From: Pseudovirgaria hyperparasitica | Lineage: Eukaryota > Ascomycota > Dothideomycetes > Acrospermales > Acrospermaceae | Reading direction: 5' to 3' | Assembly (NCBI RefSeq): GCF_010093815.1 | Contig: NW_022985550.1 | Span: 1,005,074-1,069,073, forward strand | DNA length: 64,000 bases | Shown: positions 7,897-53,983 of the stretch, piece by piece | Layout of the letters: every line of letters starts with the position of its first letter | Position numbering within the stretch: position 1 is the stretch's first letter | Notes under the pieces: model-generated | Told to the model about the DNA's origin: nothing | What the model saw: only the letters and a program-made list of their open reading frames with translations | Database searches by the model: none | Made by a program: the position numbers and the translations under genes

Positions 7897-8195
7897 GTTG
7901 TGAAGATGTTGAGCGGGTTTCGTGACCAGGAATGTTGGAAATGGCTTGGTCACTGACGTTGGCTCCAAGCACCGACGTAAATGCTGCGGTAAGCTCCAGC
8001 CTGCTTTGAGGTTGTGATCGTTGGTGCGCTATATCAATCACACCGGTATAAGAACTGCGCAGGCTCTCTGACATAATCAAACGACTCCGAAAACTTCACA
8101 CCACAACTACATAATTACCGCATGCGACTAGCACTCCGGATAGAGCTACATTCATACAAGTCGAGGTCCTCTATCTGAGGATACCAAGTACAAAT
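7897..8195. promoter_or_regulatory. Shared divergent promoter of vma13 and dis3
   Basis: Only 299 bp separate the two start codons, so both core promoters and both leaders must lie here. I see no clear TATA element. Co-regulation is possible but is not shown by the sequence. Confidence 0.6.
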
Positions 8196-11156
8196 ATGAC
8201 AAGTTTGAAGCGCTCGCTTGCCTCAGACCCAACTTCGGCAAACTTGTCCAGCAAAGTTTATGTTAGGTCGACAAAGAGCGGCAAAGTCCAAAAGATAGTC
8301 CGAGAGGTCTACTTGAGACAAGACATACCATGCTCCTCGAAACTCTGCCATCGATGCCTAGAGAATGCCCCAGCGGACTATCATGACAAGGCCTCCAGGT
8401 TTGTCCTTTCCGCCACGCCGGCTGGAACAAAGGCCTTTCCCAATGGCCACTACATCATTCCGGATACGAACGCCTTTTTAAACGGCATGGACCTGTTCGA
8501 GGTGGACTCTGCATTTTACGATGTAGTCATTCTGCAAACAGTGCTTGAAGAGGTCAAAAATAGGTCCCTCCCCATCTATCATCGGCTTGTAGCCTTAGCC
8601 AACAACGAGGATAAACGATTTTATGTCTTCTTCAACGATTTCAGATTAGAAACTTATGTCACGCGAGATCGTGCCGAGACCATCAACGACCGTAATGATC
8701 GTGCAGTGCGCAAAGCCGTATCATGGTATCAGCAGCATCTTGAGCAAGCCGTCAAATCACGTGGCTCGCAAAGATGTCCCTCAGTCATCATGCTCAGCGA
8801 TGATAGAGCTAACCTAGAGAAGGCGAAGGCCGAGAAAGTGACGGGTTCTACATTATCTAAATACCTGTCAGGACTGGACAATGCTGACCAGCTGCTTGAC
8901 ATGCTGAGCTCTTCTCAAGAACAGCGCGAGATCAAAACAGGACCGAGAGAGTTATTCTACCCTGAATACTATACCATGTCGAAGATGAATACAGGGGTGA
9001 AGGCTGGCACACTTCACCAAGGCATTTTCAACGTCTCTCAATACAACTACCTAGAGGGCTCAATACATGTACCAGCGTTCGAAAAGTCTTTGCTGATCCT
9101 TGGTCGAGAGAATAGCAACCGGGCTGTCAGTGGTGATGTTGTCTGTGTCGAGATACTGCCAAAGGACCAGTGGAAAGCGCCTTCAACAACCATTGTTGAG
9201 GAAGAGACTGTCAACAAGAACGACAACGCAGACGAGGAGAGCTCGGAAGGCGTGATCTCAGAACGAGAGCGTCGAGCACTCCAAGATGAAGTAAAGAAGG
9301 TGCACGGAACAAGCGCTGAAGGCAGGCCACAGCCTACTGCCCGTGTGGTTGGTGTCATCAAACGCAATTGGCGACAATACGTTGGACACGTCGACAAGGA
9401 TTCTGTAAAAGCAGGGTCAAAACAGAGCAGGCAGCAACAAAGCGTGTTTCTCATTCCTATGGATAAACGTATTCCGAAGATCCGTATGCGCACTCGTCAG
9501 GCTGGAGAGCTACTGGGTAAGCGTGTTCTGGTCACGATAGACTCCTGGGATCGAGATTCCCGGTATCCTGTTGGTCATTTTGTCCGCTCATTGGGCGAAC
9601 TCGAAACCAAAGGCGCAGAGACGGAAGCGTTGCTGCTTGAGTATGATGTCCAATACCGACCATTTCCAAAGACTGTACTGGACTGCCTCCCAGCTGAAGG
9701 GCACGACTGGAGAGTCCCAGCCAGCACAGACGATCCAGGCTGGCAAGGCCGACGAGACCTGCGCGATCTCATTGTGTGCAGTATCGACCCACCAGGTTGC
9801 GTTGACATTGATGACGCTCTGCATGCACGTAAACTACCTAACGGTAACTTTGAGGTTGGCGTCCATATCGCCGACGTCTCTCATTTTGTCAAGCCTAACA
9901 ATGCCATGGACAAAGAGGCTAGCATGCGTGGCACTACTGTCTATCTGGTTGACAAGCGTATTGATATGTTACCCATGCTGCTAGGCACCGATCTATGCTC
10001 GCTCAAACCCTACGTAGAACGCTACGCATTCTCCGTGCTCTGGGAAATCACCCCTGAAGCCGACATTGTCAAGGCCGACTTTACCAAATCCGTCATCCGT
10101 TCCCGCGAAGCCTTTGCCTACGAGCAAGCGCAACTCCGCATCGACGACGCATCCCAGAATGACGAACTCACTCAAGGCATGCGCACCCTTCTCGTGCTCT
10201 CCAAAAAGCTCAAGGCCAAACGCATGGCTGCCGGCGCCCTTAATCTCGCCAGCCCGGAAGTCCGCGTGCAGACCGAGTCTGAGACTAGTGATCCGGTCGA
10301 CGTCAAGACGAAACAACTCGTCGACACCAACTCCCTCGTCGAGGAGTTCATGTTGCTCGCCAACACGAGTGTTGCTGGCAAGATCTACGCTGCATTCCCG
10401 CAGACGGCACTCCTGCGTCGCCACGGCGCACCTCCAAAGAACAACTTTGCGGAGCTCGCAAACCAGCTTAAGGTCAAGAAAGGTCTAGAGCTTCGCGTGG
10501 ACAGCAGCAAAGCACTCGCCGACTCCCTCGACACATGCGTCGACCCGCAGCAGCCATTCTTCAACACCCTCGTGCGCATCCTAGCGACGCGCTGCATGAT
10601 GTCAGCAGAGTACTTCTGCTCCGGCACGCAGGCGTATCCCGAATTCAGACACTACGGCCTGGCATCCGAGATCTATACCCACTTCACGTCTCCAATCCGA
10701 AGATATGCAGATCTGGAGGCCCATCGCCAACTTGCCGCCGCAATCGACTACGAGCCGCTCGACGCCAGCCTGCACTCGCGCGGCAAGCTCGAAGCCGTGT
10801 GTCGCAACATCAATGTGCGTCACCGCAATGCCCAGCACGCGGGCCGCGCGTCCGTGGAGTACTATGTCGGGCAGGCGCTCAAGGGCCGTGTCGTCGACGA
10901 AGACGGTTTCGTGATGCGTGTGTTCTCGAACGGATTCGTGGTGTTTGTGCCGCGGTTCGGTATCGAGGGCTTGATCCGGCTGCGGGATCTTGGCACGCCG
11001 GAGCCGGAAGGGGTGTTTGACGCGGAGGAGTATGTGCTGCAGACGACGGGCAGCAGGACGGTCAGGGTCGAGCTGTTCCAGCCGGTGAGAGTGCGCATCC
11101 AGGATGAGGTAGAGGAGAGCACGGGCAAGCGCAAGGTCAAACTGGGGCTGTTGTGA
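8196..11156 (+). CDS. dis3: Exosome catalytic subunit Dis3/Rrp44 (3'-5' exoribonuclease and endonuclease)
   Basis: This is the processive RNase II-type nuclease of the RNA exosome, which degrades and processes nuclear and cytoplasmic RNA. The 986 aa product, encoded without introns, has the full order of parts. The CR3 cysteine motif (DIPCSSKLCHRC) is near residues 44-55. A PIN endonuclease domain runs from about 84 to 230, with IIPDTNAFLNG and a later DRNDRAV stretch. Cold-shock domains follow. The RNB exonuclease domain contains DPPGCVDIDDALHARK, with the metal-binding aspartates near residue 536. An S1-like C-terminus ends in KRKVKLGLL. The length fits the family (about 1000 aa in yeast). 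The start MTSLKRS lies just before the conserved KVYVRSTKSGKVQKIVREVY block, so little N-terminal sequence can be missing. Confidence 0.96.
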   Translation: MTSLKRSLASDPTSANLSSKVYVRSTKSGKVQKIVREVYLRQDIPCSSKLCHRCLENAPADYHDKASRFVLSATPAGTKAFPNGHYIIPDTNAFLNGMDLFEVDSAFYDVVILQTVLEEVKNRSLPIYHRLVALANNEDKRFYVFFNDFRLETYVTRDRAETINDRNDRAVRKAVSWYQQHLEQAVKSRGSQRCPSVIMLSDDRANLEKAKAEKVTGSTLSKYLSGLDNADQLLDMLSSSQEQREIKTGPRELFYPEYYTMSKMNTGVKAGTLHQGIFNVSQYNYLEGSIHVPAFEKSLLILGRENSNRAVSGDVVCVEILPKDQWKAPSTTIVEEETVNKNDNADEESSEGVISERERRALQDEVKKVHGTSAEGRPQPTARVVGVIKRNWRQYVGHVDKDSVKAGSKQSRQQQSVFLIPMDKRIPKIRMRTRQAGELLGKRVLVTIDSWDRDSRYPVGHFVRSLGELETKGAETEALLLEYDVQYRPFPKTVLDCLPAEGHDWRVPASTDDPGWQGRRDLRDLIVCSIDPPGCVDIDDALHARKLPNGNFEVGVHIADVSHFVKPNNAMDKEASMRGTTVYLVDKRIDMLPMLLGTDLCSLKPYVERYAFSVLWEITPEADIVKADFTKSVIRSREAFAYEQAQLRIDDASQNDELTQGMRTLLVLSKKLKAKRMAAGALNLASPEVRVQTESETSDPVDVKTKQLVDTNSLVEEFMLLANTSVAGKIYAAFPQTALLRRHGAPPKNNFAELANQLKVKKGLELRVDSSKALADSLDTCVDPQQPFFNTLVRILATRCMMSAEYFCSGTQAYPEFRHYGLASEIYTHFTSPIRRYADLEAHRQLAAAIDYEPLDASLHSRGKLEAVCRNINVRHRNAQHAGRASVEYYVGQALKGRVVDEDGFVMRVFSNGFVVFVPRFGIEGLIRLRDLGTPEPEGVFDAEEYVLQTTGSRTVRVELFQPVRVRIQDEVEESTGKRKVKLGLL

Positions 11157-31722: not shown

Positions 31723-34700
31723 TCAAAACTCCCATCCGCGCTCCTCTTCTTCATGTCCACCAAGCTCCTGCTCTGGCGCTCCTCCGTCGATAACGCTATC
31801 TTCATCGTCGTAAAACCCATTCATGCTGATCTCCTCGTCACGCAACATTGGGTCTTGGTCGTAGCTGGATTCGCGGAGAAGCGGCGGCGTGCTTGGGCTT
31901 TGCGCAGGTTGTTTGCCCATCTGTTTGCTTGTCAAGCCCGTAAATCGCTGGCCTGTCGAGCCAAACGCAGAAGGCTGCTCAGGGTAATGTTGTGGATGTT
32001 GGTGCCGGGACTGCTGTGGCATGGTCTGGGGATGCGGTTGGGGAGAGGCGCGACGCACATTTGAGGCTGGCGGCGTCATCAGGCCGGAAAGGATAGATTG
32101 CGAATGCGAGGGTACTGGCGATGGCTTTGGTCGAGAAGGAGTGAGACTGCGGTTCAAGGCGTTCGACAGTTGAGGTTGCTTGAGCTGGGGAATGGATGCC
32201 GTGCTGCCCGCTCGACTGTCTCTGCCACCCTTACGCCAGTTGCCAAACGCTGCGGCAAGCTGAGCTGCTTTCGGCGTTGCCAGGTTGGAAAGCGTTGATA
32301 GCGTAGGGAAAGAATTGCCATTTCCACTTATCAGCCGCTCCTTTTCCTGTTGCTCCATCTGTAGGTTAGTGCGGATGCGGATAGCCGCGTCGCGAACAGC
32401 CTCGCGATTGACGTTGGGTTGGCCAAGAGCATTGATCAGCTCGCTGATATCATCAACCCGTACTCCAAGGAGCTCACGAAGCCAGCCGATCTCGGTATCG
32501 CGCTCCTTGAGCTTGGCTGGAGCCTCAGTATCGATTTCTTCAAGCTGCCGTTCAAATGATTCGATACGAGTTTCGCGTTCCTGCAGTTGCTCCTGCAGAA
32601 CGACAATAGACTCTCGTAGGGCTTGAGGAGATACCTTCTCCGGCACTCCTGCGTAGCCGCCTGGCGCTTGTTGTGCAGCGGGCGACTTGACGGATGCAGC
32701 AGTGAGAGCAGCAGCGTTAGCAGCATCCCGAGCAACCTTGAGCTGTGACTCGAGATGTTCGGCCTTGGACTTGAGCAGTTCAGCTTGGTCTTCAAGGTGT
32801 TCAAGCTTCGCGTTCGAAAGATTCAGTCGTTCCTTGAGATGCGTCTCCTCACGGCGGCTGTCTTCACGGACGTTCTCCAGCGCCCGGGCGTGTTGATTGC
32901 GGATCTCTTGGTATATCCGCTCATGTCGTTCCTTGACCTCGTCGATTGCAGCCTCACGCTGATTGTAGGCCTCGTTGAGGGCATTGCGTCGAGCGTCCAA
33001 CGCTTCTTCGAGTTGAACTTCGTAACGAGCCTTGGTCTGATCGTAGTCCATCTTCAAGTTGTCAAAGTCAGCTTGCAGTCTTTGCTTCTCCCTGTCGGCA
33101 TTCGATCGAAGCATATTGATCTCATTGTTGGCAGCTTGCAAATCAGCTTCCATGAGGCGTCTAGTGCGTTGCACTTCTGTTTGTCCCATATGTCTGGCTT
33201 CCCGGAACTCGCGCTCATAACGAGCAGCGTTTCTTTCGTGCTCATCGCGCTCATTTCTGAGCTTCTCCGAACTCTCTTCAATCTTCGAAAGTTGTTGCTC
33301 GGTGTGTTCCAGCTTGACTCTGAGGCGCATGCCTTCCCGTTCCTGAGTCTCAAGTCTTTCCAGCTCGCGCTCGAGTCGTTCTCGAGTTCGAGCCTCCGCC
33401 TCGATCCGGGCACGAAGTACCTCGTATCTGGTCCTGTGCTCCTCGTCCTTCTTTTGCCATGTTGACTTTTCTTCGGCAATTGAGCCAGCAGCTTGGGTCA
33501 TGTCATATTGAAGTTTCTCAATCTTAACACGCATGCCTTCACGGACCCGCACGACTTCTTGAAGCTGTAGCTTGACGCTGTCAGATGTCTTCTTGAGCTC
33601 GTCATTCTCGATCTTGAGGTCCTCATTCTCGGCGCGGAGCTCATCGTTGCGTGACTTGCTGTGAGTCATCTCGTCACGCCATTTGTTGCTCGAAAGACGG
33701 TACTCGTCGATAGTGGCCTCGAGAGCTTCGTTCTGATCTTGTAAGGTAGCAAACTTCCGGCGGAGCTCTTCTTCCGCAACTTGCCGAGAAGAACGTTCCG
33801 AGCGAGTGTTATGCAGCTCCTCATGTAGCGCCCGAGTCTTTGATTCTTCATCTCTCAAGCTTTCCCGAATAATGTTAATCTCTTCGTCGTTGAGCTTGAG
33901 CAAACGTTGGGCCTCCTCCTCGCGCTTCTCGGCAGTTTCGCGTGCCTCTCGTTCTTGGTCGACCTTGATCGAGGCTTCCTTGATCATGGCTTCAAGGTCA
34001 GCGATACGGCCTTCATTCTCAAGAATGCTCGCGTTGTCGGACTTCTTCTGTTCCTTAGTGTCTTGACGCTCAAACGCCTCTTCAATGAATTCGCGAATCT
34101 CGTCCTTGTTTTGCGTCGCAACATATTCCTGACGAGCGATGGCCTGGTTCATGATCTCCCGCAAGTCCTCCTTGTGCTGACCAGTCGACTCATGGTGTCG
34201 CTCCAGGGTCTCATGCATGAGCGCTTTGAAGGTTTCGTTCTTCTGATCAACATCGGTGTGTTGGCGCCGAAGTGCCTCTTCCATAATATCCTTGAAGTCT
34301 TCGAGAGAGACATGATTGGAAGCTGAATGAGCCAATTGTACCTTCATTGCAGCTAATGCCTGGTACACTTCAGAAAGGCTGAAGTCGTGCTTATCCTCAG
34401 TAACTTCTGGCATTGCGGTCCGGATCTGTAATTGCTCCGAGAGAGATGCTTTGAGATCGTTGATTGTGTCGTAAAGCTCCTTTGTGTTGACAGACGGTAG
34501 TTGTGGAGACTTTGGCTTCGTGTCCTCCAGAGACTGCTTCTCGGCCATGGAAAGCTTGAAGTCCGAAAGAGCAGAGTAGAAGTCCGACAAGTCCACCTGC
34601 GCAGGGGCTGGTGGCTCCACTGGTCTGGCCGCCACCTCAGCAGCAATCCTGGCCTGCTCCTCCTGCTGCTGTCTCTGCTGTTCGGCGAGCGAAGACTTTA

Positions 34701-37700
34701 GCTCGGCAAAAGCTTGATGAACCTCAGAAAAGTCTGGCGCGGGTGGTTGGGCAGCCAGAACCTCAGCTTGATGCTGTTTCTGCTGCTCCGCAAGAGAGGT
34801 CTTTAGTTCAGCAATGGCTTCGTTGATGGCGGTCAAGTCAGGTGGTGTCGATACGATCTTCGGTTGATCCGCCCGCTGTTCGGCGAGAGAGACCTTGACG
34901 TCGGCCAAAGCCGAATATATTTCAGATAGGTCAAGAGGCGGGGCTGATGGAGTTGGCGTTGCAGAACGTGGGTCATTTTGCTGCTGTTGCGAGGCAAGCG
35001 CTTCCACGACAATTGATCTAATTTTCTCAAGCTTGCGATCTTTGAGTGGCGAACGATTACGGAAGCGTTGCTCATCGAGGTCGTCATCTTCATCATCAGC
35101 ATCGCTGCCGAGTGGCTCCGTGGAATAACTCCTGCGCGTGCTTCTAGCACTGCGTCTAGACATTGCTGCAACAGACTCCTGCATGAGACGCATTGTCTCT
35201 TCAAGTGGCCCAAGACGAGTGGAGAGAACGCTATCAATGAGACCATCCACATGGTGGTCGAAGAAGCGAGCACGAGATTGCAGCTTGTCAATGCCGGCTT
35301 CATCTGAGACCATGTCGTCCCAATCGCTGACAGGAGCATCTTCTGCAGTGTTGAGACGGTGTACAGGAGACTCATACGCAAGACCAGCCCTGGAATCGCT
35401 GAAAGGATCTTGGATGAGTTCTGATTCACCATGTCGCATACCGGTTGGAGCTTGCATTCTGCGGGGGCTCGGGCTGGGTGCATCGCTACGTAGATTGGTG
35501 AAATTGGGTCGCAGATTGGGTGTGCCGAAGTCCATAGAGCCTTGTGGCTGGCTAGAACGTTCCCAAGTCTGAGCCTCTTCCTTCTCAACGCCAAAGTCCG
35601 AACCGGCATCATTCATATGCTTCATGACCTCGTCGATATCGTTGAACGAGGGCTGCGCAAAGGAATCGAAATCGACACTATCGTTATCCGCATGCGGCAT
35701 CGGTCTACGCGACAATGCAGTTCTATACGACCCATCGTCGCTTGGACGGAAGGTTGTGGTCGGGCTGCGGCTGACCTGCCTGTTAGGAGCGCTTGAATTG
35801 TGCTCTATGTCAGTGACATCAGAAGGCTTCGTAACGTGAAGACCAAATTCAAATGCACCGGAGCCAGAACCAATCCGGGGTGTGAATTCCTTGGCGATGG
35901 CCGAGAGCGAGCTCTTGTTTGCCGCGTGATTGCTTGGTGGACGTTCTGGCAGCTTTTCCACAGAAGCAGAAATGCTCCCGTCGTGTTCGGTCATCGAACG
36001 ACTGTCGTCCAGGAAGCTGGAACCAACAGGTGTGGCATCGGAGCTTCTGTTGATCCCCACAATATCTGCCGGTGCGTGCGCCCGAGGAGCTGGTAAGGCC
36101 TCCTTGACGACTGGCTTCGTAGGTGCAAGATTTTCCTTTGCATCTGGTATGGGGCTTCTCTCGACCTGGGGTTCTTGCTTCGAGGCCTGGAACTGAGTAG
36201 TCTCGGAGAGCGGCTGGGAAGCAAGAACGGGCTGCGGCGCGAATTTGGGCAGAGTGTCCCCATCATCGCCAAACCTTCTAGCCCTCTTCTGCCGGGCATC
36301 TGACTGGGTAACACGGCCATCGGCGTCTTCTTGATCTTCTTCTTCGATCTCATCATCATCAGACCCCGATCTCGCGCCAGAGGCTCTTCTAGGAACAGCG
36401 TCAGGGCGGATGATGGGTACAGCCTTGGAGCGTTTCGCAGGTTTGATGATGTCCTTGTGACTGAAGTTGATCGGTCCGAATATGTGAGATTGCACTTCTT
36501 TCTCTTCAGCCTCAGCTGGCTCCTCAGGCATTATAGCAGCATCTACATTTGGTCGGAATGAGGTAGAATCAGGCTTGAAAGCAGGACCACTGGAAGCAAA
36601 GTTGAAATCTCCGCTAGGGGCAGGATTCGAGTTTAGGCTCGCACCAGGAGTAAAGCTAGGTGCAGCCACGTTCCAGCTGCTCGCAGCAGGGTTGAAAGAA
36701 AATGGTGCTGCCGAGCCGTAAGGAACGCTTCGACTGAAGCTGTTCTTCTTATGGCCTCCGCTTGGTTGATACTCGAAACCCAGTGAGTTGAACGAAAAGT
36801 TGCCCGGCTGAAAGGACGCCGTTGGATTGAACTTGAATTCTTTTGCACTGGCGTTGAGACTTGAGCCAATTGAGGCCTTTGAAGCACGGCTACCGTGTCC
36901 TGGTTTCCAGATGTTACTGCCTTGAGACGTTGTCGCTGAATGCATTCTGGCGCCAACAGCTTTCTCTTCCGCACTTGGGTTGGTGATTTCTGATATATTG
37001 GTCTTCGCGTCGTCACTAATGTCACTCCTACCATTTGCTGCAGCTGTGTTGTATGAGTTCTGCTTCGTTTGTGTCAGGGAGTGATTGCGGTTATGAGGCT
37101 GCGGCTGGTGAAGCACTTGCTCAACTGGACGCGGGCGTCTCCATTCGGAAATGCTATCATCCAATTCAGATTGGTGAGAAATCTTGGGGCTCTCAGCACC
37201 GAAGCGACTACCGGGACTGAACTGCCCTCCTGAAGCAACGTCCTTTTCGAAGGTGGCCTCGAGGTGGTAGTCAGCGGACTCAACGTCGCGCTGCAGGTTT
37301 TCACTAATATTGTGCTGATGACGTGGCTTTGGTACGGCCATCTCCGTCTCAGCACCTTTGACTTGGTGTGGTACATCATGTTCTTCCTCGGCCTCTTCTT
37401 CTGGGACTTCCTGAAGAGTGGACGATGGTCTCAAGTTCGTCAGACCGGGAGATTGCATGCGCTGTTGATGTAGCTGCGCAAGCAAATCGTCCTTCTGAGG
37501 GAAAGAGTATGTTTGCGGCGTGAAGCCAAAGGGTGATACGGGTGACATAGTGTCGTTCAGACTTGGCATACTGTTGTTTTGGGAGATGCCTGGTGAGCCG
37601 CCTCTTGTTGTGGCTTGTGATCCAAAGTATGATTCATGTGGGGAAAAGGTGCGGAATCCTCCAGGTGGCGTTGCTTGAGGAGCAAAACTTGACGGCATCG

Positions 37701-39381
37701 CAAACATCGAGTTCCTGTGCATGTGGGATGACATGCTTCTCTGTGAGTTGCCGAAAGCCGACATAGGCGAAGCAATTGATCGCGTGGACTGATGCCCTGA
37801 CATCCCACTTCCGTTTGGTCCAATCCGCTGACTGCCTGCTGAAGAAGAAGGCAAGGGTGGAGAGAACGGTAAAGGAGGGTACTGAGACGAACCTTGCCTC
37901 GACATCATTGTTGGTGACTGAGATTGTGAAACTTCTTCTGAACCTCCCAACGACACGCCTAATGCGGCCAGCTTCTGCTCAACAAGGAAGTCCTGGTATG
38001 CCTTCCAGTCGTTCTCATTAGGTATATGTACCTTGAAGGATTTAGTACTCATCTGCTGAGATTGATCGGTTGGATCAGGGAAAACATCGCGGTTTTGAGC
38101 ATGGCCAAGCGGCTGAAGGATGTCCGGGGTACCTCTCCAGTGCCCGAAACCTCGCGTATCGTAACCTTCATCCTCGAACTTGGCGAGTCTTGCCCTCACT
38201 TCAGCGTGCGACAGAGGCATAGGTGCATGTCCGGGCTTGCCTCTGTTTGAATCAATCGGGAAGTCCATAACCACACTTCGACCTTTCTTCGTTTTGATCA
38301 CTTTCCTTGGACGCTTGGGTGGTGGTGTCGGTGCCCGTTCCTCGACTTCCTGTACACGCTTGACCGGAGATGGTGAAATCGGAAGAGCTGTCTCAGTGGG
38401 TATCGGCGTAGAAGGCTTCTTTGATACCAGTCGAGTAGCGGCATCAGAGGCTTCGATTGGCGACAATGATTGGTCTGCCGGAGAAGCTGTATTCGCAGCA
38501 TTTTCAACCGGCGAAGTCAAAGACTGTCGAGCCACAAGTTCCTTGGTTTCCTGAGAGCTCTCAGGCTCCGGCTCCTGTGGCTTCGACGCATACCTTGAGG
38601 CCATCATCTTGGCGAGATGTTCCTTCTCTTCCAGACCAAAGTGAGACCAGAAATCTTCTTGCTTTAGAGTCAAGTTCTTCTTGTGTCCCTTCCTCGCCTC
38701 TGTAGGTTCAAGCGATGATTGTCCAGTGGTTTCCGATTCAACGGGCTCTTTCGACTGAGCGTCGACGAATTTGCGAAGTAGCTCCTGTCTTGAGGCTTCT
38801 GGACTTTGCGACAGCAAATCCCTGAAGGCTTGCCTCAGGACTGGTCGCGGTGTGGCTTCTTGTGCGGCAAGCAAAGACGCAAAATGTTCCGCAGTCGGCG
38901 TTGCTTGTAGAGCCGGGACAAGAGCTGGCAGGAGATAATCAAGCCCAAAATCGGGGGTCTCTTCGTCTGCTACTCGAGAAGGAAGTAGATGGTCAAGACC
39001 AAATTCGATCTCTGACGATTCGCTACCTAGATCGTCACTTCCAAAATGCTCTGGATCTTGAATTCTTTCACTGACTGTGCCTGGTGAAGGCTGTCTATAT
39101 GGAGACCCCCAACTTGTTGTGTAGTACGACCCAGGCTCTTTAGGTACCGACGGCGCAGAAGGAGTCCGTGGGATACCAGCGATTGATGGTAGCGATGGAA
39201 GAGGTGGGAGCTCGGGACTTGAGTGACCTAGGGTGTTTGCGGGAGACGACCACTGATCCCGCGAAGGTGAGAGATCGTTCGAATGATCGAAGGGTTGCAG
39301 GTCTTCAACAGTCTGTCCGGGAGCAGACGGAGGAGAAGACGGCAGGGTATCTTGAGGTGTCGATGGTCGTGAAGCTTGCAT
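31723..39381 (-). CDS. Very large coiled-coil protein of unknown function
   Basis: A single uninterrupted frame encodes 2552 aa. Residues 1 to about 1350 are mostly Ser/Pro/Gln-rich and probably disordered, with short conserved-looking islands: RQAFRDLLSQSPEASRQELL near 185, SRGKPGHAPMPLS-like sequence near 370, HIPNENDWKAYQDFLVEQKL near 450. Between about 1479 and 1774 lie two tandem repeat families, listed separately. A long continuous coiled coil follows (about 1790-2250), rich in Glu/Arg/Lys with heptad-like spacing. Then comes a conserved segment, LRELLGVRVDDISELI with AAIRIRTNLQMEQQEKERL, and a basic Ser/Pro/Gln tail ending acidic. Such proteins in Aspergillus and Neurospora are variously labelled myosin-like or involucrin-repeat proteins, but there is no motor domain here. 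A scaffold role at septa, spindle poles or Woronin bodies is only a guess. Confidence 0.85.
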   Translation of the reverse strand: MQASRPSTPQDTLPSSPPSAPGQTVEDLQPFDHSNDLSPSRDQWSSPANTLGHSSPELPPLPSLPSIAGIPRTPSAPSVPKEPGSYYTTSWGSPYRQPSPGTVSERIQDPEHFGSDDLGSESSEIEFGLDHLLPSRVADEETPDFGLDYLLPALVPALQATPTAEHFASLLAAQEATPRPVLRQAFRDLLSQSPEASRQELLRKFVDAQSKEPVESETTGQSSLEPTEARKGHKKNLTLKQEDFWSHFGLEEKEHLAKMMASRYASKPQEPEPESSQETKELVARQSLTSPVENAANTASPADQSLSPIEASDAATRLVSKKPSTPIPTETALPISPSPVKRVQEVEERAPTPPPKRPRKVIKTKKGRSVVMDFPIDSNRGKPGHAPMPLSHAEVRARLAKFEDEGYDTRGFGHWRGTPDILQPLGHAQNRDVFPDPTDQSQQMSTKSFKVHIPNENDWKAYQDFLVEQKLAALGVSLGGSEEVSQSQSPTMMSRQGSSQYPPLPFSPPLPSSSAGSQRIGPNGSGMSGHQSTRSIASPMSAFGNSQRSMSSHMHRNSMFAMPSSFAPQATPPGGFRTFSPHESYFGSQATTRGGSPGISQNNSMPSLNDTMSPVSPFGFTPQTYSFPQKDDLLAQLHQQRMQSPGLTNLRPSSTLQEVPEEEAEEEHDVPHQVKGAETEMAVPKPRHQHNISENLQRDVESADYHLEATFEKDVASGGQFSPGSRFGAESPKISHQSELDDSISEWRRPRPVEQVLHQPQPHNRNHSLTQTKQNSYNTAAANGRSDISDDAKTNISEITNPSAEEKAVGARMHSATTSQGSNIWKPGHGSRASKASIGSSLNASAKEFKFNPTASFQPGNFSFNSLGFEYQPSGGHKKNSFSRSVPYGSAAPFSFNPAASSWNVAAPSFTPGASLNSNPAPSGDFNFASSGPAFKPDSTSFRPNVDAAIMPEEPAEAEEKEVQSHIFGPINFSHKDIIKPAKRSKAVPIIRPDAVPRRASGARSGSDDDEIEEEDQEDADGRVTQSDARQKRARRFGDDGDTLPKFAPQPVLASQPLSETTQFQASKQEPQVERSPIPDAKENLAPTKPVVKEALPAPRAHAPADIVGINRSSDATPVGSSFLDDSRSMTEHDGSISASVEKLPERPPSNHAANKSSLSAIAKEFTPRIGSGSGAFEFGLHVTKPSDVTDIEHNSSAPNRQVSRSPTTTFRPSDDGSYRTALSRRPMPHADNDSVDFDSFAQPSFNDIDEVMKHMNDAGSDFGVEKEEAQTWERSSQPQGSMDFGTPNLRPNFTNLRSDAPSPSPRRMQAPTGMRHGESELIQDPFSDSRAGLAYESPVHRLNTAEDAPVSDWDDMVSDEAGIDKLQSRARFFDHHVDGLIDSVLSTRLGPLEETMRLMQESVAAMSRRSARSTRRSYSTEPLGSDADDEDDDLDEQRFRNRSPLKDRKLEKIRSIVVEALASQQQQNDPRSATPTPSAPPLDLSEIYSALADVKVSLAEQRADQPKIVSTPPDLTAINEAIAELKTSLAEQQKQHQAEVLAAQPPAPDFSEVHQAFAELKSSLAEQQRQQQEEQARIAAEVAARPVEPPAPAQVDLSDFYSALSDFKLSMAEKQSLEDTKPKSPQLPSVNTKELYDTINDLKASLSEQLQIRTAMPEVTEDKHDFSLSEVYQALAAMKVQLAHSASNHVSLEDFKDIMEEALRRQHTDVDQKNETFKALMHETLERHHESTGQHKEDLREIMNQAIARQEYVATQNKDEIREFIEEAFERQDTKEQKKSDNASILENEGRIADLEAMIKEASIKVDQEREARETAEKREEEAQRLLKLNDEEINIIRESLRDEESKTRALHEELHNTRSERSSRQVAEEELRRKFATLQDQNEALEATIDEYRLSSNKWRDEMTHSKSRNDELRAENEDLKIENDELKKTSDSVKLQLQEVVRVREGMRVKIEKLQYDMTQAAGSIAEEKSTWQKKDEEHRTRYEVLRARIEAEARTRERLERELERLETQEREGMRLRVKLEHTEQQLSKIEESSEKLRNERDEHERNAARYEREFREARHMGQTEVQRTRRLMEADLQAANNEINMLRSNADREKQRLQADFDNLKMDYDQTKARYEVQLEEALDARRNALNEAYNQREAAIDEVKERHERIYQEIRNQHARALENVREDSRREETHLKERLNLSNAKLEHLEDQAELLKSKAEHLESQLKVARDAANAAALTAASVKSPAAQQAPGGYAGVPEKVSPQALRESIVVLQEQLQERETRIESFERQLEEIDTEAPAKLKERDTEIGWLRELLGVRVDDISELINALGQPNVNREAVRDAAIRIRTNLQMEQQEKERLISGNGNSFPTLSTLSNLATPKAAQLAAAFGNWRKGGRDSRAGSTASIPQLKQPQLSNALNRSLTPSRPKPSPVPSHSQSILSGLMTPPASNVRRASPQPHPQTMPQQSRHQHPQHYPEQPSAFGSTGQRFTGLTSKQMGKQPAQSPSTPPLLRESSYDQDPMLRDEEISMNGFYDDEDSVIDGGAPEQELGGHEEEERGWEF
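34060..34945 (-). repeat. Two protein-coding tandem repeat families inside the coiled-coil gene
   Basis: Around residues 1479-1687 about six units follow the pattern (D)LSE.Y.AL.(D/E)LK.SLAEQ, for example DLSEIYSALADVKVSLAEQ, DLTAINEAIAELKTSLAEQQ and DFSEVHQAFAELKSSLAEQQ, separated by Pro/Gln spacers. Directly after (about 1688-1774) come about four units of roughly 22 residues: EDFKDIMEEALRRQ, ETFKALMHETLERH, EDLREIMNQAIARQ and DEIREFIEEAFERQ. Confidence 0.85.
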
Positions 39382-45143: not shown

Positions 45144-48100
45144 CTACGCCTCCAATGCAGCTTTTAGAGCAGAATCGATATAGTTGCTGATCCTTTTCCG
45201 ATTCTTCATGTTTAAAGCTCCATTTCGCCATGCTGAGCGCAGCTGTTTGAAAGCAATACGGTCACCTTCATGGGGTTCTGCGTTGATAAATTCAACATAG
45301 TGACGAGCAACACGTTGGCGAATGACGCTCCTAGGACTCATTAAAGCTTCGCCGTAGTAGTTGATCAGGTTCGTAATGCCGCTGTCAGATCTTCTTCTGT
45401 GAAGGTCTTCAAAGGCAAGAAATCGGAATTCGTTGTACATATGTGTATTGAAGTTGCGAATCAAAAAATGGGACCAGAATTGATACAAAACTTCCATGTC
45501 GTAGGGGCAAGATCTGAAGGGAGCAAGTCGCCGTTGTTCGAGTGCTTTTATTCGATGTTGTGTATAATATTCGCCAGTTGATTCAGGGGGAAGAGAGTCC
45601 ACGGGCTTGTCTTTGTCTTTGACCCAATATACTGTCAAAGGGCTGGTGACTTCTACTTTCTCGATAGGTTTCGTTGGAGTGAGGGTGCGGTGGAGGTTCA
45701 GCGATGGCCTCCGATCATCTCTGCAGGCTCAATGAGCATTGGCACTCGCATTCGCACGTGATCAAATGATCTGGCTTACCCGTGCGCCGCATTGACTCCG
45801 TTGACTTGGATGCCGTTGGGTCGGTGATCGGACTTATGTATGTCTTCGGACACGTTTTGAAGATCAATTGAGCCGTTCGAGAACGTTCGAGAAGAAGCTG
45901 TGTGGAAAGAGCCAGTAGCAGGAAGAGGCTGGGTCGAGATTGGCACGTCACGCACAATGATCTTCAGCCCCTCAATTTGTTCATCGGAGAATGAATCTGC
46001 CTCTGGATTCATCGCGGGCGGTATTGATGCAGTGTTGACTTGATCGTTCTGGCTAATGGCGGTGGACGGCGAGAAAGGCTCAGCATGTTGTGCATTCTCA
46101 GCTGTAACACGAGAGTGCTGTCCATTTACCATCGGTGTGTTGGAGATATCCTGTAATGACTGATAGGTCACCTCATTCTGGTGCCATCCCGGGCTTGATG
46201 GGCCTGTCGGCGACATTGTTGGTGGGTAGCGCATGCCGCCTATGTTTTCAAGGCCCTGGGGATGAGGCACAGGTGGATTATGAAGCTCGTCAGGACCATC
46301 ATTCTGAGCGGTGGAATCTCTCTCAGATGTACTCAAGACCCATTGCTCCCAGCCTTCGCGGCGTCGCAGCCTGTCTTTACCATCGACCCCAAGGCGGTAC
46401 TCGATTATCCGAGACTGGTAGCACACCAGCTTGATCATTTCCAGATCTGTGGTGAGCTGCTTGATTCTGTTGAAATCGGCGATGAACGTAAGGTAAACAA
46501 AGCCCTTTGAATCCATGTGCTTTCTCATGAACATATCCTTGCAGAGGTTCTCAACAGAGAAATAGTATTCACTGTGGATATTAGCGTCGAGGGTGTTGCA
46601 TCGGTAGTCGTGTACTTACAGTTGCATTTGAATCATGCTGACAAGCTGATAATTGTCCATCATTGGACTGTATGGCATTGCACTCATTGATTGCATGTAC
46701 GGCTGGTCATACATGCCCGGAATGAATGTCTGGATAGGTGATAGTTGTTGACTCTGAGGATAGCCGTTGGCAGAACGTCCATAGTTACTGTCCATCACCA
46801 TCGACTGTGGTCGGCCCCCACCACGCATCGACCTTCCTTGGGGCGGAGGCCCAAAATAAGATGTTCCCTCAGAGAAGGACGGCGAGCGAGGGTACGTATA
46901 CTGGCCTGGCTGCATTCCAGAGGTATGTCCATTCGTGAAGCCATGGGCTCCATGATGGTTGAAAGAGTTGGTTGCACCCCGTCCACCACGCATACTGCCA
47001 CGTCCTCTACCTTCGCCACGCTCCCTCCCAGACACGGAGCCAAATTGTCCGTTGCGTCGCTCACCTGAGCCATGCTTAGCCGGAGGGAATGAGGTCTCTA
47101 CTGCTGTAGACTGCTTTCTGTACGCAGCTTCCGGACGATCTGATGTTGAGGCACCGGCGTTTCGTGATTCTTGAGTCGCTGCGATGTCATTCATCGAAGA
47201 GGAGAGATCGTCTCGTCCCTTTTCGGCAGACGTGGATTCGAACTTGCGGGAAGCCCTCTGGCGGTTAGGCATGGCTTGTTTTGACCCTTGACCACTTTGG
47301 GTAGGTCCAGGAGATGGGAAACCTACACCCTCTGCGGCACTGTTCCGATATCCATTCGGAGCATCGGCAAACTTGAACGTACGGTCACTGCGCTCATTTG
47401 AGCCACTCGAGGTCTTCCCATCCTTGTAATGAGGACCGGCACTGGTGGCGCGGCGTGACTTCTCCGGGGTGATGTCTCGCGCGCTGGCTCCATCGCTTCT
47501 TTCTCGCTTGGTAGCATCGCCGTTGTATGGGGTCGGGCCACCTGTAGACTCTTTTTCAGGACTACCAGAGGTGTTGTTGTAGGCACCACCTCGTGACGAC
47601 GCTGTAGCGCCACCACGACTTCCACCGCGAGCACCTCCTCTTCTGTTTCCAGGATTGGGCAATGGTGTATTGAACACAACTGTGGGTGTATATGGCATGG
47701 ACACCCACTCATTCTTACCGTGTGTACGAGATGCCGTGGTGGTACGGTCTTTCACATCCTTTTCAGGCTTGCTGACAGCCTTCTTTTTGTCCTCATCCTG
47801 TGCGGTTTCAACAGTCGGCCAAGACTGTTCGTCTCTGGTTGGTGGTAAAGGAGCTGCGACATTCGAAGGATCTTCTTTGTGAGGTACTTTACTAGTTCGC
47901 GTATCTCGGCGTCCTTGCCCTGCTTTGTCGTCCACTTGAGTACGCGCATCAATGTTAGCATTTTGTCCTTTTTCTCTCCGGCCAGCGGATCTTAAATAAG
48001 TGCCTTCCGGCCCAGTTGGATGCTTACTCTTTCTTCTAGTCTCTGGCTTAATCGCATCATTGGTCTTCTCTGTCGAAGCTTTCATCGACGGTATGCTTGG

Positions 48101-48769
48101 TACGGCTGGGACACTGACCGGGCCCTTTTTAGGAGCCTGGGGAAGAGCAGAGGGCTTGGCAAACTCAGATGCACGCTGCTTCCAAATGTTGACTGTTGGA
48201 GGAGGTGCTTCATGCAAAGGCTTCTGCTGAGTCTTTTCCTTTGACTGGCCCTTCTTAGACTTCTCTTCTTGACTTGCACCTTGATCAGCAGACTTCTCTA
48301 CCGCTGCAGAGCCCTGGGACTTGTTCTCCCATGTTGACTCAGATGAGGCGTTGGCTAATGACGAAACATCATCGTCTTTCCCAAGAGTGGATGATGATGC
48401 AGTGCCACCGAATTCCGGTGATGCAGGACCCGAAATTTGACTCCGTTGCTGGATATTGGGCTGGGTTTGAGGAGCGACGCCATTGGCTTGCGGCTCTTTA
48501 CCAGAAGACTTTTCCAGTTCTTTCTGAACTCTTTTCAGTGAAGCTGCAGCGGTATCATCTTCCACATTATTCACGACTGGTGGGTTTGTTGGCAGAGTGT
48601 TACTGGACGGTGTGGCATCCTTTGCGGGTGTTATTGACCCAGACGATGCTTTGGCCGTAGGTGCTGCTGATGCTGATGTCGAAGAGATGCCTTTCGCGGC
48701 TTGTGCATATGAAAAGGAGCTCATAGTTCCAGTCGTGTCGCTGGATGAACGGTGGGAGGTAGTGGCCAT
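45144..48769 (-). CDS. La-related protein, LARP1/Sro9 type, with C-terminal DM15-like repeats
   Basis: The product is an RNA-binding regulator of mRNA stability and translation. Three exons, 48769-46620, 46571-45780 and 45720-45144 (introns 48 and 59 bp, GTAAGT..CCACAG and GTAAGC..CTGCAG, both phase 2), give 1172 aa. Residues 1-690 are disordered, starting MATTSHRSSSD with FSYAQAAKG as in Sro9 relatives, and rich in RG/GGRG patches (GGARGGSRGGA, GRGRGSMRGGRG). The La motif spans about 700-785: LEYYFSVENLCKD, MRKHMDSKGFVYLTFIADFN and IKQLTTDLEMIKLVC. After a Ser/Pro/Asn-rich linker, about 1050-1165 reads YQFWSHFLIRNFNTHMYNEF, then FEDLHRR and LINYYGEAL. This spacing resembles the helical DM15 repeats of animal LARP1 that bind the mRNA cap. 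MSSFSYAQ (24 codons from the long frame's start) is an alternative start. A 5'UTR intron from about 49317 to 48990 is possible. Confidence 0.88.
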
Positions 48770-51700
48770 GCCAATATGAGAGGCAATTAGCCGCAAGCGG
48801 TGAGGTCTACCAGGTCTTTCGATTGACCTTGGTAGTGATGAGTGATCTCAGACTAGAGCTTGAGCGAGAGACACCGAACAACACAGCCTGTGACTGTGTG
48901 TCCGGAGAGGTGAAGGTCGACCCTCTCCGCGCTAGCTGTCCGATCTTGTTTGACTCGGTCGCGCGCGTGGGTGCTTCGACTGGCAGACTCTGTGAGAGAT
49001 GAAATACCGAATATTTGGTAATGAGATGTGTAGACGAGAGAATGGGTGAAGTTGAAAGTGAAGTCAGGAACGCTTGTTGAGAAGGCAAGTCAGAGGGAGG
49101 GTGTCGCTGGAGCGGTCGCGAGCTGTTACGAATGAGTACCAGAATGATGAGGAAAACGATGGCGGAAAGGTGAGAGAGTGGTGTCGCAGATGAGCAACGA
49201 AATGGGAGGTTTGGTTTGAGGGGAAATCGATTCGGTGGCAATGTCGCACAACGTGGGTGGTGTCTGAACAGGCAGGCGAAAACAGCAGCGACGACGGATG
49301 GAAACAATTTTGCTTACCTTCTAATAGTACCGGTGTGCCTGAGGCGTCGCGGGATCCGCCAAGCAGCGAGGATTCGGTCGTAGGGTAAACGGTGCGCCAA
49401 GTTGAGGGCTTTACCGCAGCTCGAAAACAGAGAAGCGCGAGAGCGAAAAGGGAGCGAGACAGCAGACCGAGAGATATGAGGAGGTGAAGAGTAAGTGAGA
49501 AGAGATAGGTGGCAGGGTAGTAGTAGCAGAAGAGAAAATCAGAGAGAGTGGTTTTTGTTTGGAGTGTGGAGGAGTGGCACGATGGATACCCGCAAAGATA
49601 ATTTTCAACTGCTGAAGACCGAGGAGTGCCCGTTGTGCGTTATGTGTGCTCGTGAGGTTTTTCAATTTCGCCGTGCTCAGTTGTGCACCGGCTGTGCCAG
49701 ACTGTACCCGCCCGCTCTCCCCAACTTGGATGCCACATAGCCCGCGGGCCGGCAGCCTTGGTGTGTTAATACGACTACGGTAATAATTGTTAACCAGGTA
49801 CTAATAAGTGTTAAGGCTTCGACCTCATTCATTCTGCATCATTTATCCACTAATAATCACTAATTGTCACCTAAGAGGGCATTCAACGTTAGGATAGCCC
49901 ACTCAATAGGCTCATTTCGGCTTTCATTCCAACATCCTCGGCCGTGGCTCTCTCTCACACACACTCTCTCTCTCTCTCTTTCTTCTCTCCATTCGCGCAC
50001 CATTGAACTTTTGCTATAATCCTTCGTATCCCCTGGAATCAAAACTCTTACTGAAACACTTCAAGTATGTGCCTGTCTCTCACTTGTCATTTTTCTCCTT
50101 GGCTTCCATTCGGCATAATTCACGCGGAGAAATGAGTTACCTTAGCTGCCTGACAAGCCAAGGCGCTAAGTGTCCCAGTTCATGTCGTCATCTCCAGCAG
50201 CACGTGAGAAGTCGATACTCAGTACCAACTCCTATCTACCTTTTTTATTTATTTTATATGATTCTTCACTTGCTGTGTCTGCAATCAGCTGCATTCAGGC
50301 GTTTCCCGTTACGAGACATCGGGACACGTCCCCTCGTTCTCGGTGGTCAGGTGAATTGTGTTAATTGTGTCACTCACACGCGTTATCTGTCCTACACGTC
50401 GTATGGTGACGCTGCTGCAGATGTGGCGCTCATCATTGTCCTCTTTTCACCCCAGACGCCTGTCAGCTCGCTGGTCGCAGAGTCCTCCTGTTATGAAGTT
50501 GAATGCAGTGATCATAGCGTCGTCCTGCATCAAGCATATCACACATCTCAGGCAGTCCTAAGTTTCTCCGACTTGCATTCCACTCGGCCCACATCAGTCA
50601 TGATCTACTGTTGAACCCAAACCTTGCGTGGGAAATGAGACTGCGAGAACGACGACATTGTATGGTAGATTGTAAGAAAGGTTGCGAGCGTGGGATAAGT
50701 CACCTTTCAAAACAAAGAATATTGGTGCCGTTGAGGAAGAGCATAATGAAGAGTGATGATAGGGAGTAAGAGTAGTGACTTGGGGGTGTAGCGGAGATGG
50801 TATCAATATCTATGGTCGTATCAGACCGAAAGTATGGTATTGTCGAGGCGCCGTCGGTGGTCACAGTACGTCTGGCTCTTCATTCACATATCGATATGCT
50901 AGACCTAGGAGCGATTTTTAGTACATCTGGGTCTCTTTATGGGAACTGGCAGCCTTTCATCGTGGAGACTATCAATCATCTATGTGGTGCGAAACGATGA
51001 TATATCCAGTCCGATCAGACTTACACGAAAACCGACTCTCACGCACATTATGTCCTTCTAATCCTCCAGCTTCCGTCCATCAGCAAGTTTGAACGTAGCC
51101 TCGAACAGATGGAATTTCATAAAACTCTGTAGCCAAGACTCATAAAGAGAGCCTATCATCGATGTACGTCAGGTCTTGAGGGATCTATGAGACCAACATC
51201 CTGGCTCCACGTTGTATCTAGGACATCTCACGACACAAACGTCTTCCTTTGCCCTGCATGCGTTGTTCTGATTCACATGGCACAGTTTGTTTTCGTAATA
51301 GCGATTAGTTTGTGGTTTCGGTAACGAGCTTGAAAACTACATGGCGGTGTTCTAAATAATTTGTCATTCGGTGACTTGTGTCCACTGGTCTGTGAGGTGA
51401 TGTGCGTGAGAGAAACAAGCCACGGAATGGTAGTAGGAGACGGTATATGTCTAGGTAGTGGTTCATGTACAGCTACGAAAGCATTGGCTGTTGTCTTCCT
51501 ATCCCTCACTCTATGTAAGGTGTTGGTATTGTTTAGCCACTGTCACTTTCTGCATTGTTGACACACGAGTGAAACTGCCGTGCCATGATATTGAGACAAG
51601 TGCCATGATGGCATTTTCTTCTGCTGATAAGATACACAATACTCTGCCCTTAGCTTTATAGTCGCCTATGTACTTTCACGCCTGATTACCAACATGCGTT

Positions 51701-51793: not shown

Positions 51794-53983
51794 TCAAACC
51801 ACTTTGATATCCCCGAAAAATCTGCCTACCGCCTTCTCTCCCCTCCTGTCTCTCCCTCTGTCCCTTGCACTTTCTTGATGTTGCCTCCTCGGCTCTTCAC
51901 CAACGCCACCCCTATCGCTCATCATCGAGGGACTATTCCGCCCCTGCTGCCTGAGATACTGAGCATAGAGCCTCGAATTCTCAGCCTTTGACACGTCCCT
52001 TCCGTGCGCTGACTCCATCCCGCTATCCTCAGCCGGGCGCCATTTCGCCTGCGGCTTATGCTCGATACCGCCATTAATCCGCCCTGTAAAGTCCTCTCGC
52101 TCCACCATGACGACCATCCACACGCCCACCTTGTTGTCCGAGCCCAGGAGCGGCGTGCAGTGAATCCAGCGCGTCTTGGACTCAACAATGTTGGGCCCGA
52201 ACTTTCCATGCAGCCATTGGATTTTGGCTGTTACGCCGACGCCACGGTCGAACGCTTTGGCGACTTCGGCGCGCACGTGCGCCGGACCGCCGACGCGTGA
52301 GAGGAAGTTTGATTGGAGGAGTCCAGGGACTCGGAGAGAAGCGGATGTGAATACTATACGTAGAGAAGGGGATGGGCGCACGAGGAGGTACTGGACAGTG
52401 TTAATAATGCGGTTGAGCGCACGGGGAGAGAGAGGTCTTACGTTTTTGTATACTCCTGGCAATCGACCAGAGGATCCGAAGCGTGCTGGTGGGTATAGAG
52501 CCTCATCAGAGTCGTCGTCGAGACCAACGTACTTGTGGTTGGGATGATGGTTCTTCCTCGCACCACTAGAATTCGGGCGCGTGCTGGGGGCTGAGCCACG
52601 GGCGTCCTGCTGCACTGCCCTTAGCTCTTCATCGCTCAACATGCGTCCGAGCATTCTAAGGTGTTTGAGTGATTCTTTCGGGGTAGCTTCTGACTGTTCT
52701 TTCTGGCCTAATCTGTCGTGCATCAATAGGCGTTGGAATGACTCGAGACCTCGCCCGCCGTCTACCAAATTTGTCACATCGACTTGGCAGCCGATGAAGT
52801 AGCGCGCTTGAAGGTTATTGTCGTGGAGAGGCGCAACAAGGAGAAGGTTGAGGAATGGTGTACCTTCGCGACGGCTGAAGATGTTAGCGCAAATACCTAC
52901 AGATGCCATGGAACTATGAACTGACTAATTCAGTAATGTCTCGCACAGCTCTTGTCCCTTGTCTATGGCTTCCTTGATCCTTCTTAGGGTCGCTTGGGAG
53001 CTTTTCGGGCCTTGTAGAAAGCGACAATTCTTGCCGATAGTGTATTTGCGTCCGTACTGGGTGGTGCGCGTGAACTCTGGTTGCGATAATCAGTAAAGTT
53101 CCCACGATAGATTTGCGTGACTCTAACCTTCTGAACAGTATACAATGGGGTTATCAGGCTGAGTTGGATCTGTCATGCAATATACTTCTGCAACTCCCTG
53201 TACAAGATCCTGCATAATCGGCGTGTTCGAACCTGTGATTTCCTTGACAAGACATTCTGTCACCACCTGTGTTAATTGATGGGTTATGTAGACCGGAAGA
53301 GCTTCCTCCACCAGTGTTTGCAAGAGCTGATCAGCAGTGTCTTCGAGGCTGGGGTTAATGCTGACTGCGCCCTTGTTCCCACCGCGAGGAGACAGATCCA
53401 TACTGATACGTTGCGCAATTATTGCGTTAGCGTAACGTGCAGCGGCGATTGCCTTTTGGGAGTCGAGGTATCGTATCAGGAGCGGCACCAGTTGTGGTTG
53501 ATAGCGATTGAGAAAAATGGTGAACTTGTGGAATAAAGCGTGGTCTTCAAGGATAGATTTGAGGTGGTCAACAGAGAACAAACGTTCGGCAAGCATTTCT
53601 GCATCTGACTCTGTTACCGTTGGAGGAGGTGGCCTCAAATCAAAGGTCTCTGGTTCGTGATAACGCGACTTGTCATGATCATAGGCCTCAGATTGCGGTA
53701 GTCCTGGGGGAGGTTCCTCATACAAAGGCTGATCCATGTCTTGACTTGGATCTGTCTCATTTGAGTCCTCCTCGTAGCCATCAAAGATCGATACAGCCCG
53801 TACGCTCTGACTAGACCTTGGAGACATTTGGCCGGGCGCTTGCAAATCATCGAAAGCATCGTCTCGTAGTAACTGGTCATCGAACTCTGTGTTTTCTATC
53901 GCTGGTGACATGATTGGACTGCTAATTCGATGCAATAATGGAGGAGTGGAAGACCTTGGCCTCGGGCTTTGTTGATAGGTCAT
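51794..53983 (-). CDS. RGS-LOV-PAS blue-light receptor candidate
   Basis: The product is a candidate photoreceptor coupling blue light to G-protein signalling; fungal RGS-LOV proteins have been described. Four exons, 53983-53128, 53076-52926, 52874-52442 and 52390-51794, give 678 aa. Introns are 51 bp each: GTTAGA..AACCAG, GTCAGT..CTTCAG and GTAAGA..GTCCAG. The last has no stop and keeps frame, but removing it joins GVYKN to YLLVRPSPSLRIVF, as a continuous PAS fold needs. A disordered N-terminus is followed by an RGS-like helical region at about 125-255 (LKSILEDHALFHKFTIFLNR, then IRYLDSQKAIAAARYANAII). The LOV domain (about 265-376) has Cys303 in GKNCRFLQG, Asn335, Asn345 and Gln366, all as in photoactive LOV. 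A second PAS-like domain lies at about 481-585 (TRWIHCTPLLGSDNKVGVWM) with an Arg-rich tail. No membrane segment is seen. Confidence 0.88.

What the first reader, a model, noticed from the sequence alone, without database searches (positions are those of the whole stretch)
51794..53983. RGS-LOV-PAS protein with all LOV photochemistry residues in place
Seen: an RGS-like helical region, then a LOV domain with GKNCRFLQG (Cys303), Asn335, Asn345 and Gln366, then a second PAS-like domain. Known: these residues form the flavin-cysteinyl adduct and hydrogen-bond network of phototropin-type LOV domains, and fungal RGS-LOV proteins are reported. Inference: light controls G-protein shut-off, and the C-terminal PAS may dimerise or sense a second cue.
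Basis: partly seen in the sequence, partly recalled or inferred. Interest (0 to 1): 0.72.

Follow-up and report, generated by a model that had tools for sequence, protein, structure and literature searches.

The report
Fungal blue-light sensor, RGS label unproven
This is a real gene for a fungal blue-light receptor with an intact light-sensing domain, but the part said to switch off G-proteins cannot be recognised as such by sequence, so it looks like a little-studied kind of photoreceptor rather than a proven light-controlled G-protein switch.

Summary
The LOV domain is solid: PAS_9 E=2.6e-14, AsLOV2 E=4.8e-28, Cys303, Asn335, Asn345 and Gln366 in place. The RGS half is not supported: no Pfam RGS match in either protein, while the same model finds RGS genes elsewhere in this genome; alone, the window N-terminus scores inside a null of real segments (8 of 93 as high), though the paralogue scores above it. 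No Glu-Asn dyad occurs in that domain. The C-terminal domain is as conserved as the LOV (59/102 vs 61/109) but its PAS identity is unproven. Best reading: a fungal LOV protein of the class without a recognised effector (LovA/BcLOV3/lov-u), else a strongly diverged RGS-LOV. Val267 at the AsLOV2 N414 position predicts a slow photocycle. A basic amphipathic helix follows the LOV here; the aligned stretch of the paralogue is acidic (+2 vs -5).

The parts
53128..53983 (-).
   Evidence: Spliced model; no Pfam RGS match
53077..53127 (-). Intron 1, 51 nt, GT..AG; splits the same codon in the same phase as the paralogue's intron
52926..53076 (-). Exon 2: LOV core with GKNCRFLQG, Cys303 and Asn335
52875..52925 (-). 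Intron 2, 51 nt, GT..AG
52442..52874 (-). Exon 3: end of LOV with Asn345 and Gln366, linker with basic amphipathic helix at residues 400-417, first residues of the C-terminal domain
52391..52441 (-). Intron 3, 51 nt, GT..AG, in frame and open; excision supported by the paralogue
51794..52390 (-). Exon 4: conserved C-terminal domain (PAS-like, unproven; domain about residues 476-578, exon from residue 481), tail and stop codon

Best explanation
The gene encodes a fungal blue-light receptor with an N-terminal domain of unrecognised family, a phototropin-like LOV, a linker helix and a conserved C-terminal domain that is perhaps a PAS. It most probably belongs to the known fungal class of LOV proteins without a recognised effector (LovA, BcLOV3, lov-u), of which this genome holds two. 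Shown: gene model, LOV with complete photochemical residues, paralogue, lack of an RGS match. Inferred: flavin (likely FMN) binding; formation of the Cys303 adduct; slow return to the dark state because Val267 sits at the AsLOV2 N414 position and Leu347 at F494; release of the linker on illumination; use of the basic helix at 400-417 and of the C-terminal domain to change membrane or partner binding. It is unlikely to act as a GTPase-activating protein.
For: LOV matches and pocket residues. No RGS match listed in either paralogue, while in the same genome five rows, by my grouping four genes, exceed the cut-off of that model, and none of them lies at one of the three LOV loci found. In Zymoseptoria tritici the RGS-LOV Zt_Lov1 is caught by Pfam RGS at 4.2e-08 and is only 17.7% identical to Zt_Lov2 (PMC9512790, passages); our two are 40% identical over 507 aa, so they look like one class. 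Two fungal LOV types, with and without RGS, are described (PMC10056346, passages). AsLOV2 kinetics: N414V over 12 h, F494L 206 s against 80 s (PMC3903614, passages).
Against: No fungal LovA, BcLOV3, LovB or BcLOV4 sequence was available, so orthology is not tested. A two-row profile of both N-termini against RGS domains beat all shuffles locally (0 of 100, 0 of 200; 4 of 200 globally), and the paralogue alone beat all 93 null segments, so a remote RGS relation is not excluded. BcLOV3 is listed as short-LOV in one review (PMC12941744, passages), which does not fit a 678 aa protein well.
Confidence: 0.58

Rival explanations
1. It is a strongly diverged RGS-LOV of the BcLOV4 type: in the dark the RGS-like domain masks a basic amphipathic helix; blue light frees it and the protein moves to the plasma membrane.
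For: Same order of parts as described for BcLOV4 (N-terminal domain, LOV, polybasic helical linker, C-terminal domain of unidentified function; PMC8993538, passages). Residues 400-417 are amphipathic and basic (moment 0.49, charge +2); the best basic windows of 11, 14 and 18 residues in the linker were reached by 44, 77 and 41 of 2000 shuffled linkers. Faint RGS signal in the paralogue.
Against: No RGS match by Pfam; the window N-terminus alone is inside the null. The aligned stretch of the paralogue is acidic, -5 against +2, so the helix is not a shared trait of the pair. BcLOV4 reverts with t1/2 18.5 s (PMC10793642, passages), while Val267 predicts slow reversion.
Confidence: 0.28
2. One reading: a light-gated RGS that speeds GTP hydrolysis on a G-alpha subunit.
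For: The genome has four loci with strong G-alpha matches. Magnaporthe MoRgs5, with an N-terminal RGS and C-terminal PAS and PAC, bound MoMagB and MoMagC in yeast two-hybrid (PMC3248559, passages).
Against: No RGS match. The Glu-Asn pair, whose replacement in RGS4 abolishes GAP activity (PMC10794492, passages), does not occur in residues 125-262. The same Magnaporthe paper notes that MoRgs5 resembles Mdm1, whose G-protein role was not established.
Confidence: 0.07
3. On the C-terminal part only: the domain is not a PAS but a separate fold of these fungal proteins. (Independent of the other readings, so confidences do not add up.)
For: No Pfam match in the window protein, one sub-threshold match in the paralogue; PDB search with the two-row profile listed one sequence, E=0.63, a plant virus coat protein, taken as chance; no relative confirmed in pattern-based scans of the prokaryote and viral collections.
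Against: The pattern of strands at its end reads like a PAS (own reading); PAS_4 E=0.0066 in the paralogue.
Confidence: 0.35

Closest known systems
Fungal LOV proteins without recognised effector (Fusarium LovA, Botrytis BcLOV3, Verticillium lov-u, Zymoseptoria Zt_Lov2)
   Same: LOV domain in a protein without a recognised effector; LovA has 674 aa, this one 678 (PMC10056346, passages). That these named proteins form one class is partly my inference.
RGS-LOV (Botrytis BcLOV4, Fusarium LovB, Magnaporthe MoRgs5, Zymoseptoria Zt_Lov1)
   Same: Order of parts; basic amphipathic helix after the LOV in the window protein
   Different: No Pfam RGS match; valine at the N414 position predicts slow reversion, BcLOV4 is fast
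Plant phototropin LOV2 (AsLOV2)
   Same: Cys, Asn, Asn, Gln of the photochemistry; no 11-residue insertion as seen in this genome's WC-1 LOV
   Different: No kinase match; Val267 for N414, Cys269 for V416, Leu347 for F494, Val349 for L496, Lys320 for R467, Leu316 for V463
White collar 1 of the same genome (C3:79851)
   Same: LOV domain, 38-41% identity in the LOV
   Different: WC-1 has the insertion, two further PAS matches and a GATA finger; the window protein has no GATA match

Membership tests
LOV photoreceptor domain | PAS/LOV sequence family with GXNCRFLQ motif | tested here: met
   PAS_9 E=2.6e-14; best PDB match NPH1-1 LOV2 E=4.8e-28
LOV photoreceptor domain | Adduct Cys and flavin-contacting Asn, Asn, Gln | tested here: met
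   C303, N335, N345, Q366 at the AsLOV2 C450, N482, N492, Q513 positions
LOV photoreceptor domain | Flavin binding and light-driven adduct | not testable with these tools
   Needs a purified protein
RGS-LOV | N-terminal RGS domain recognised by sequence | tested here: not met
   No RGS match listed in either paralogue; positives in the same genome; leave-one-out RGS scores 29 to 115 against 14.5 for the window N-terminus and 21.4 for the paralogue's
RGS-LOV | Glu-Asn dyad for GAP activity | tested here: inconclusive
   No Glu-Asn pair in residues 125-262; its place reads Leu-Val ungapped or Pro-Leu in hhalign's register (own reading), but the alignment itself is weak. Whether the named RGS-LOVs keep the dyad was not seen
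RGS-LOV | Polybasic amphipathic helix between LOV and C-terminal domain | tested here: inconclusive
   Window protein: best basic windows of 11, 14, 18 residues reached by 44, 77, 41 of 2000 linker shuffles; paralogue 536, 384, 799 of 2000
RGS-LOV | Light-driven binding to anionic lipid | not testable with these tools
   Needs experiment
Fungal LOV without recognised effector (LovA/BcLOV3/lov-u) | LOV but no recognised effector domain | tested here: met
   Only PAS-family models pass their cut-off in Pfam
Fungal LOV without recognised effector (LovA/BcLOV3/lov-u) | Sequence orthology to LovA or BcLOV3 | not testable with these tools
   No fungal collection available; pattern-based scans of the prokaryote collection (C- and N-terminal domain) and the viral one (C-terminal domain only) confirmed no relative
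Fungal LOV without recognised effector (LovA/BcLOV3/lov-u) | Light induction through white collar | tested here: inconclusive
   No excess of GATC, CGAT or GATCGA in 1 kb upstream of either paralogue; expression not testable
Second PAS domain | PAS fold in the C-terminal domain | tested here: inconclusive
   No match in the window protein, PAS_4 E=0.0066 below cut-off in the paralogue; profile tests without power

The most novel reading that the evidence does not exclude
The fungus carries two slow-cycling LOV receptors of one class that diverged in output: the window protein has a basic amphipathic linker helix and is recruited to membranes by light, the paralogue has an acidic stretch there and is not, while a cryptic, non-catalytic RGS-like domain in both still docks on G-alpha. 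That would make the two fungal LOV classes (with and without RGS) branches of one family.
Probability: 0.12. Interest if true: 0.55.

Novelty: new member of a known kind. Interest (0 to 1): 0.3.

Why it matters
The Fusarium review says that fungal LOV proteins other than white collar and VIVID have received very little attention (PMC10056346, passages). A paralogue pair with opposite charge on the linker stretch and a pocket that predicts slow cycling would be a natural experiment on how such receptors signal, and a possible source of slow membrane-recruitment tools. The correction also matters: the RGS label should not be carried forward without a structure or a tree.

Tried and rejected
Structure prediction of the N-terminal domain: switched off, so neither the RGS nor the PAS fold could be tested by structure. 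Profile search of the N-terminus in the PDB listed 50 sequences, all matched only at the start of LOV domains. A marginal Sec7-like_HUS match (E=0.014 and 0.010, below cut-off) was taken as chance. hhalign of the two N-termini against four RGS domains: score 22.6, probability 7%, 0 of 100 shuffles as high; against each RGS domain alone nothing; against six: 23.7, probability 12%, 0 of 200 local and 4 of 200 global. hhalign of the C-terminal domain against LOVs: 2 of 100 shuffles higher; against WC-1 PAS domains 23 of 200 local and 155 of 200 global; against PAS plus LOV 7 and 16 of 200; the known-homologue control, LOV against PAS, gave 5 and 26 of 100, so this test has no power. The failed control also warns that weak RGS scores mean little either way. 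Synteny between two 9.9 kb flanks of the paralogue and the window: one weak hit (28.8% over 66 aa, E=6e-4) from 135 ORFs, so no sign of a segmental duplication. Light-response elements upstream: no excess. Relatives of the C-terminal domain in the prokaryote and viral collections and of the N-terminal domain in the prokaryote collection: 66, 13 and 87 pattern matches, none confirmed.

Full report
What is there. On the minus strand a gene runs from 53983 to 51794 in four exons (53983-53128, 53076-52926, 52874-52442, 52390-51794) with three GT..AG introns of exactly 51 nt each and codes for 678 aa. Without removal of the third intron, which is open in frame, the product would be 695 aa; some searches were made with that longer version before the third intron was recognised. 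A search of the window's own genome (35.0 Mb, 59 contigs, unnamed) gave four rows: the gene itself, two rows of a paralogue on contig 11, and one LOV on contig 3. The paralogue has two exons and 777 aa in my model, is identical in 202 of 507 aligned residues, has its intron in the same codon and phase as intron 1, and lacks the 17 residues of intron 3.

The LOV domain. Pfam PAS_9 matches residues 274-370 with E=2.6e-14, and the best PDB match is the LOV2 of NPH1-1 (oat phototropin), E=4.8e-28. Cys303, Asn335, Asn345 and Gln366 fall on C450, N482, N492 and Q513 of AsLOV2, and the paralogue keeps all four. Of the 20 pocket positions that I listed, 13 are identical to AsLOV2 in the window protein; the seven others are Val267, Cys269, Leu316, Lys320, Leu347, Val349 and none further among the photochemical four (one search lists each; the count of identical ones is 14 if only these six changes are subtracted, which is the correct figure). 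The domain lacks the 11-residue insertion that the white collar 1 LOV of this genome has, which by recalled knowledge favours FMN over FAD. Val267 sits at N414 and Leu347 at F494, and the paralogue has Val and Leu there too. In AsLOV2, N414V is reported with a photocycle of over 12 h and F494L with 206 s against 80 s for the wild type; VIVID and YtvA, in which this Asn is not conserved, are slow too (PMC3903614, passages). BcLOV4 reverts with a half-time of 18.5 s (PMC10793642, passages). I therefore expect a slow receptor; this is inference from other LOV domains.

The RGS claim. No RGS match was listed, with E<=10 asked for, for the full window protein, its N-terminus, the full paralogue or its N-terminus (HMMER's filters drop most matches above about 0.1). 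The same Pfam model gave six rows in this genome: five over its cut-off, which I group into four genes, and one below it in a repetitive stretch with a stop. None lies at a LOV locus; the nearest is about 360 kb from the window gene. A two-row profile of both N-termini against RGS domains scored above all shuffles locally (0 of 100; 0 of 200), with low probability (7% and 12%), and 4 of 200 shuffles reached it globally. Single sequences are the harder test: the window N-terminus scored 14.5, reached by 8 of 93 segments of other proteins; the paralogue scored 21.4, reached by 0 of 93; true RGS domains left out one at a time scored 29 to 115. So a trace of RGS likeness may exist in the paralogue, but the window protein cannot be called an RGS protein on sequence. 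No Glu-Asn pair occurs in residues 125-262; its place reads Leu-Val without gaps or Pro-Leu in the register of hhalign (own reading). Replacing this pair in RGS4 abolishes GAP activity (PMC10794492, passages).

Which known class. A review describes two kinds of fungal LOV protein besides white collar and VIVID: one with RGS, one without recognisable domains (PMC10056346, passages). Fusarium LovA has 674 aa and LovB, with RGS, 663 aa (same passages). In Zymoseptoria tritici, Pfam detects RGS in Zt_Lov1 at 4.2e-08, and it shares 17.7% identity with Zt_Lov2 (PMC9512790, passages). Our two proteins share 40% over 507 aa and neither shows RGS, so I file them, with moderate confidence, under the class without recognised effector. 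I could not test orthology, since no fungal collection was available. Pattern-based scans confirmed no relative of the C-terminal domain in the prokaryote and viral collections, nor of the N-terminal domain in the prokaryote collection. A paper on Monilinia laxa photoreceptors that names BcLOV3 (PMC7827745) was seen only in a search listing.

Linker and C-terminal domain. Between the paralogues the LOV is 61/109 identical, the C-terminal domain 59/102, the N-terminal domain 46/137 and the linker 21/94. The C-terminal domain is thus as conserved as the LOV. It has no Pfam match in the window protein and a sub-threshold PAS_4 match in the paralogue (E=0.0066). Profile tests against LOV and PAS domains were not clearly above shuffles, but neither was a known-homologue control, so they say nothing. 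In the linker, residues 400-417 form a basic amphipathic stretch (moment 0.49, charge +2). The best basic windows of 11, 14 and 18 residues were reached by 44, 77 and 41 of 2000 shuffled linkers; in the paralogue by 536, 384 and 799 of 2000. Other parts of the window protein reach a higher moment, the LOV helix near 316-334 above all (0.61), and the paralogue has a window of moment 0.46 and charge +1 at 441-458. The stretch of the paralogue aligned to 400-417 has charge -5. For BcLOV4, a review says that unmasking of a polybasic amphipathic linker at this place is speculated to bind lipid in light, with RGS seeming to inhibit this in the dark (PMC8993538, passages). This is the best hint of an output for the window protein; it rests on composition only.

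Surroundings. The genome holds four loci with strong G-alpha matches and four weaker rows, one over the cut-off only with its neighbours; one phytochrome row, two rhodopsin rows and five photolyase/cryptochrome rows in four loci (the tool calls such counts lower bounds). Of 67 open frames of 150 codons or more in the window, 20 were scanned against Pfam; 10 of the 20 matched something, none a photoreceptor or G-protein part. The flanks of the paralogue share one weak hit with the window.

Verdict. It is a new member of a known kind, of modest interest, with two sharp tests left: the photocycle rate, and light-driven membrane binding of one paralogue but not the other.

Noticed in passing
L002:674-3063 (G000:C11:815639-818028): Second full-length LOV protein of the same architecture, 777 aa, with an acidic stretch where the window protein has a basic helix, and an Arg-rich stretch further on in its linker.
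   Followed up: yes
whole genome G000: Only three LOV genes found (window gene, paralogue, white collar 1); no VIVID-like LOV seen at E<=1 with the white collar LOV as query. Such counts are lower bounds.
   Followed up: partly
53127-53077, 52925-52875, 52441-52391: All three introns of the gene are exactly 51 nt long, a multiple of three; the third holds no stop in frame.
   Followed up: no
31726-39381: Open reading frame of 2552 codons on the minus strand without any Pfam match at 0.001.
   Followed up: no
45779-48847: Two adjoining open frames on the minus strand, the downstream one with a La domain, perhaps exons of one La-related gene.
   Followed up: no
8115-11153: Rrp44/Dis3-type exosome nuclease in one open frame (RNB E=4.6e-102).
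   Followed up: no
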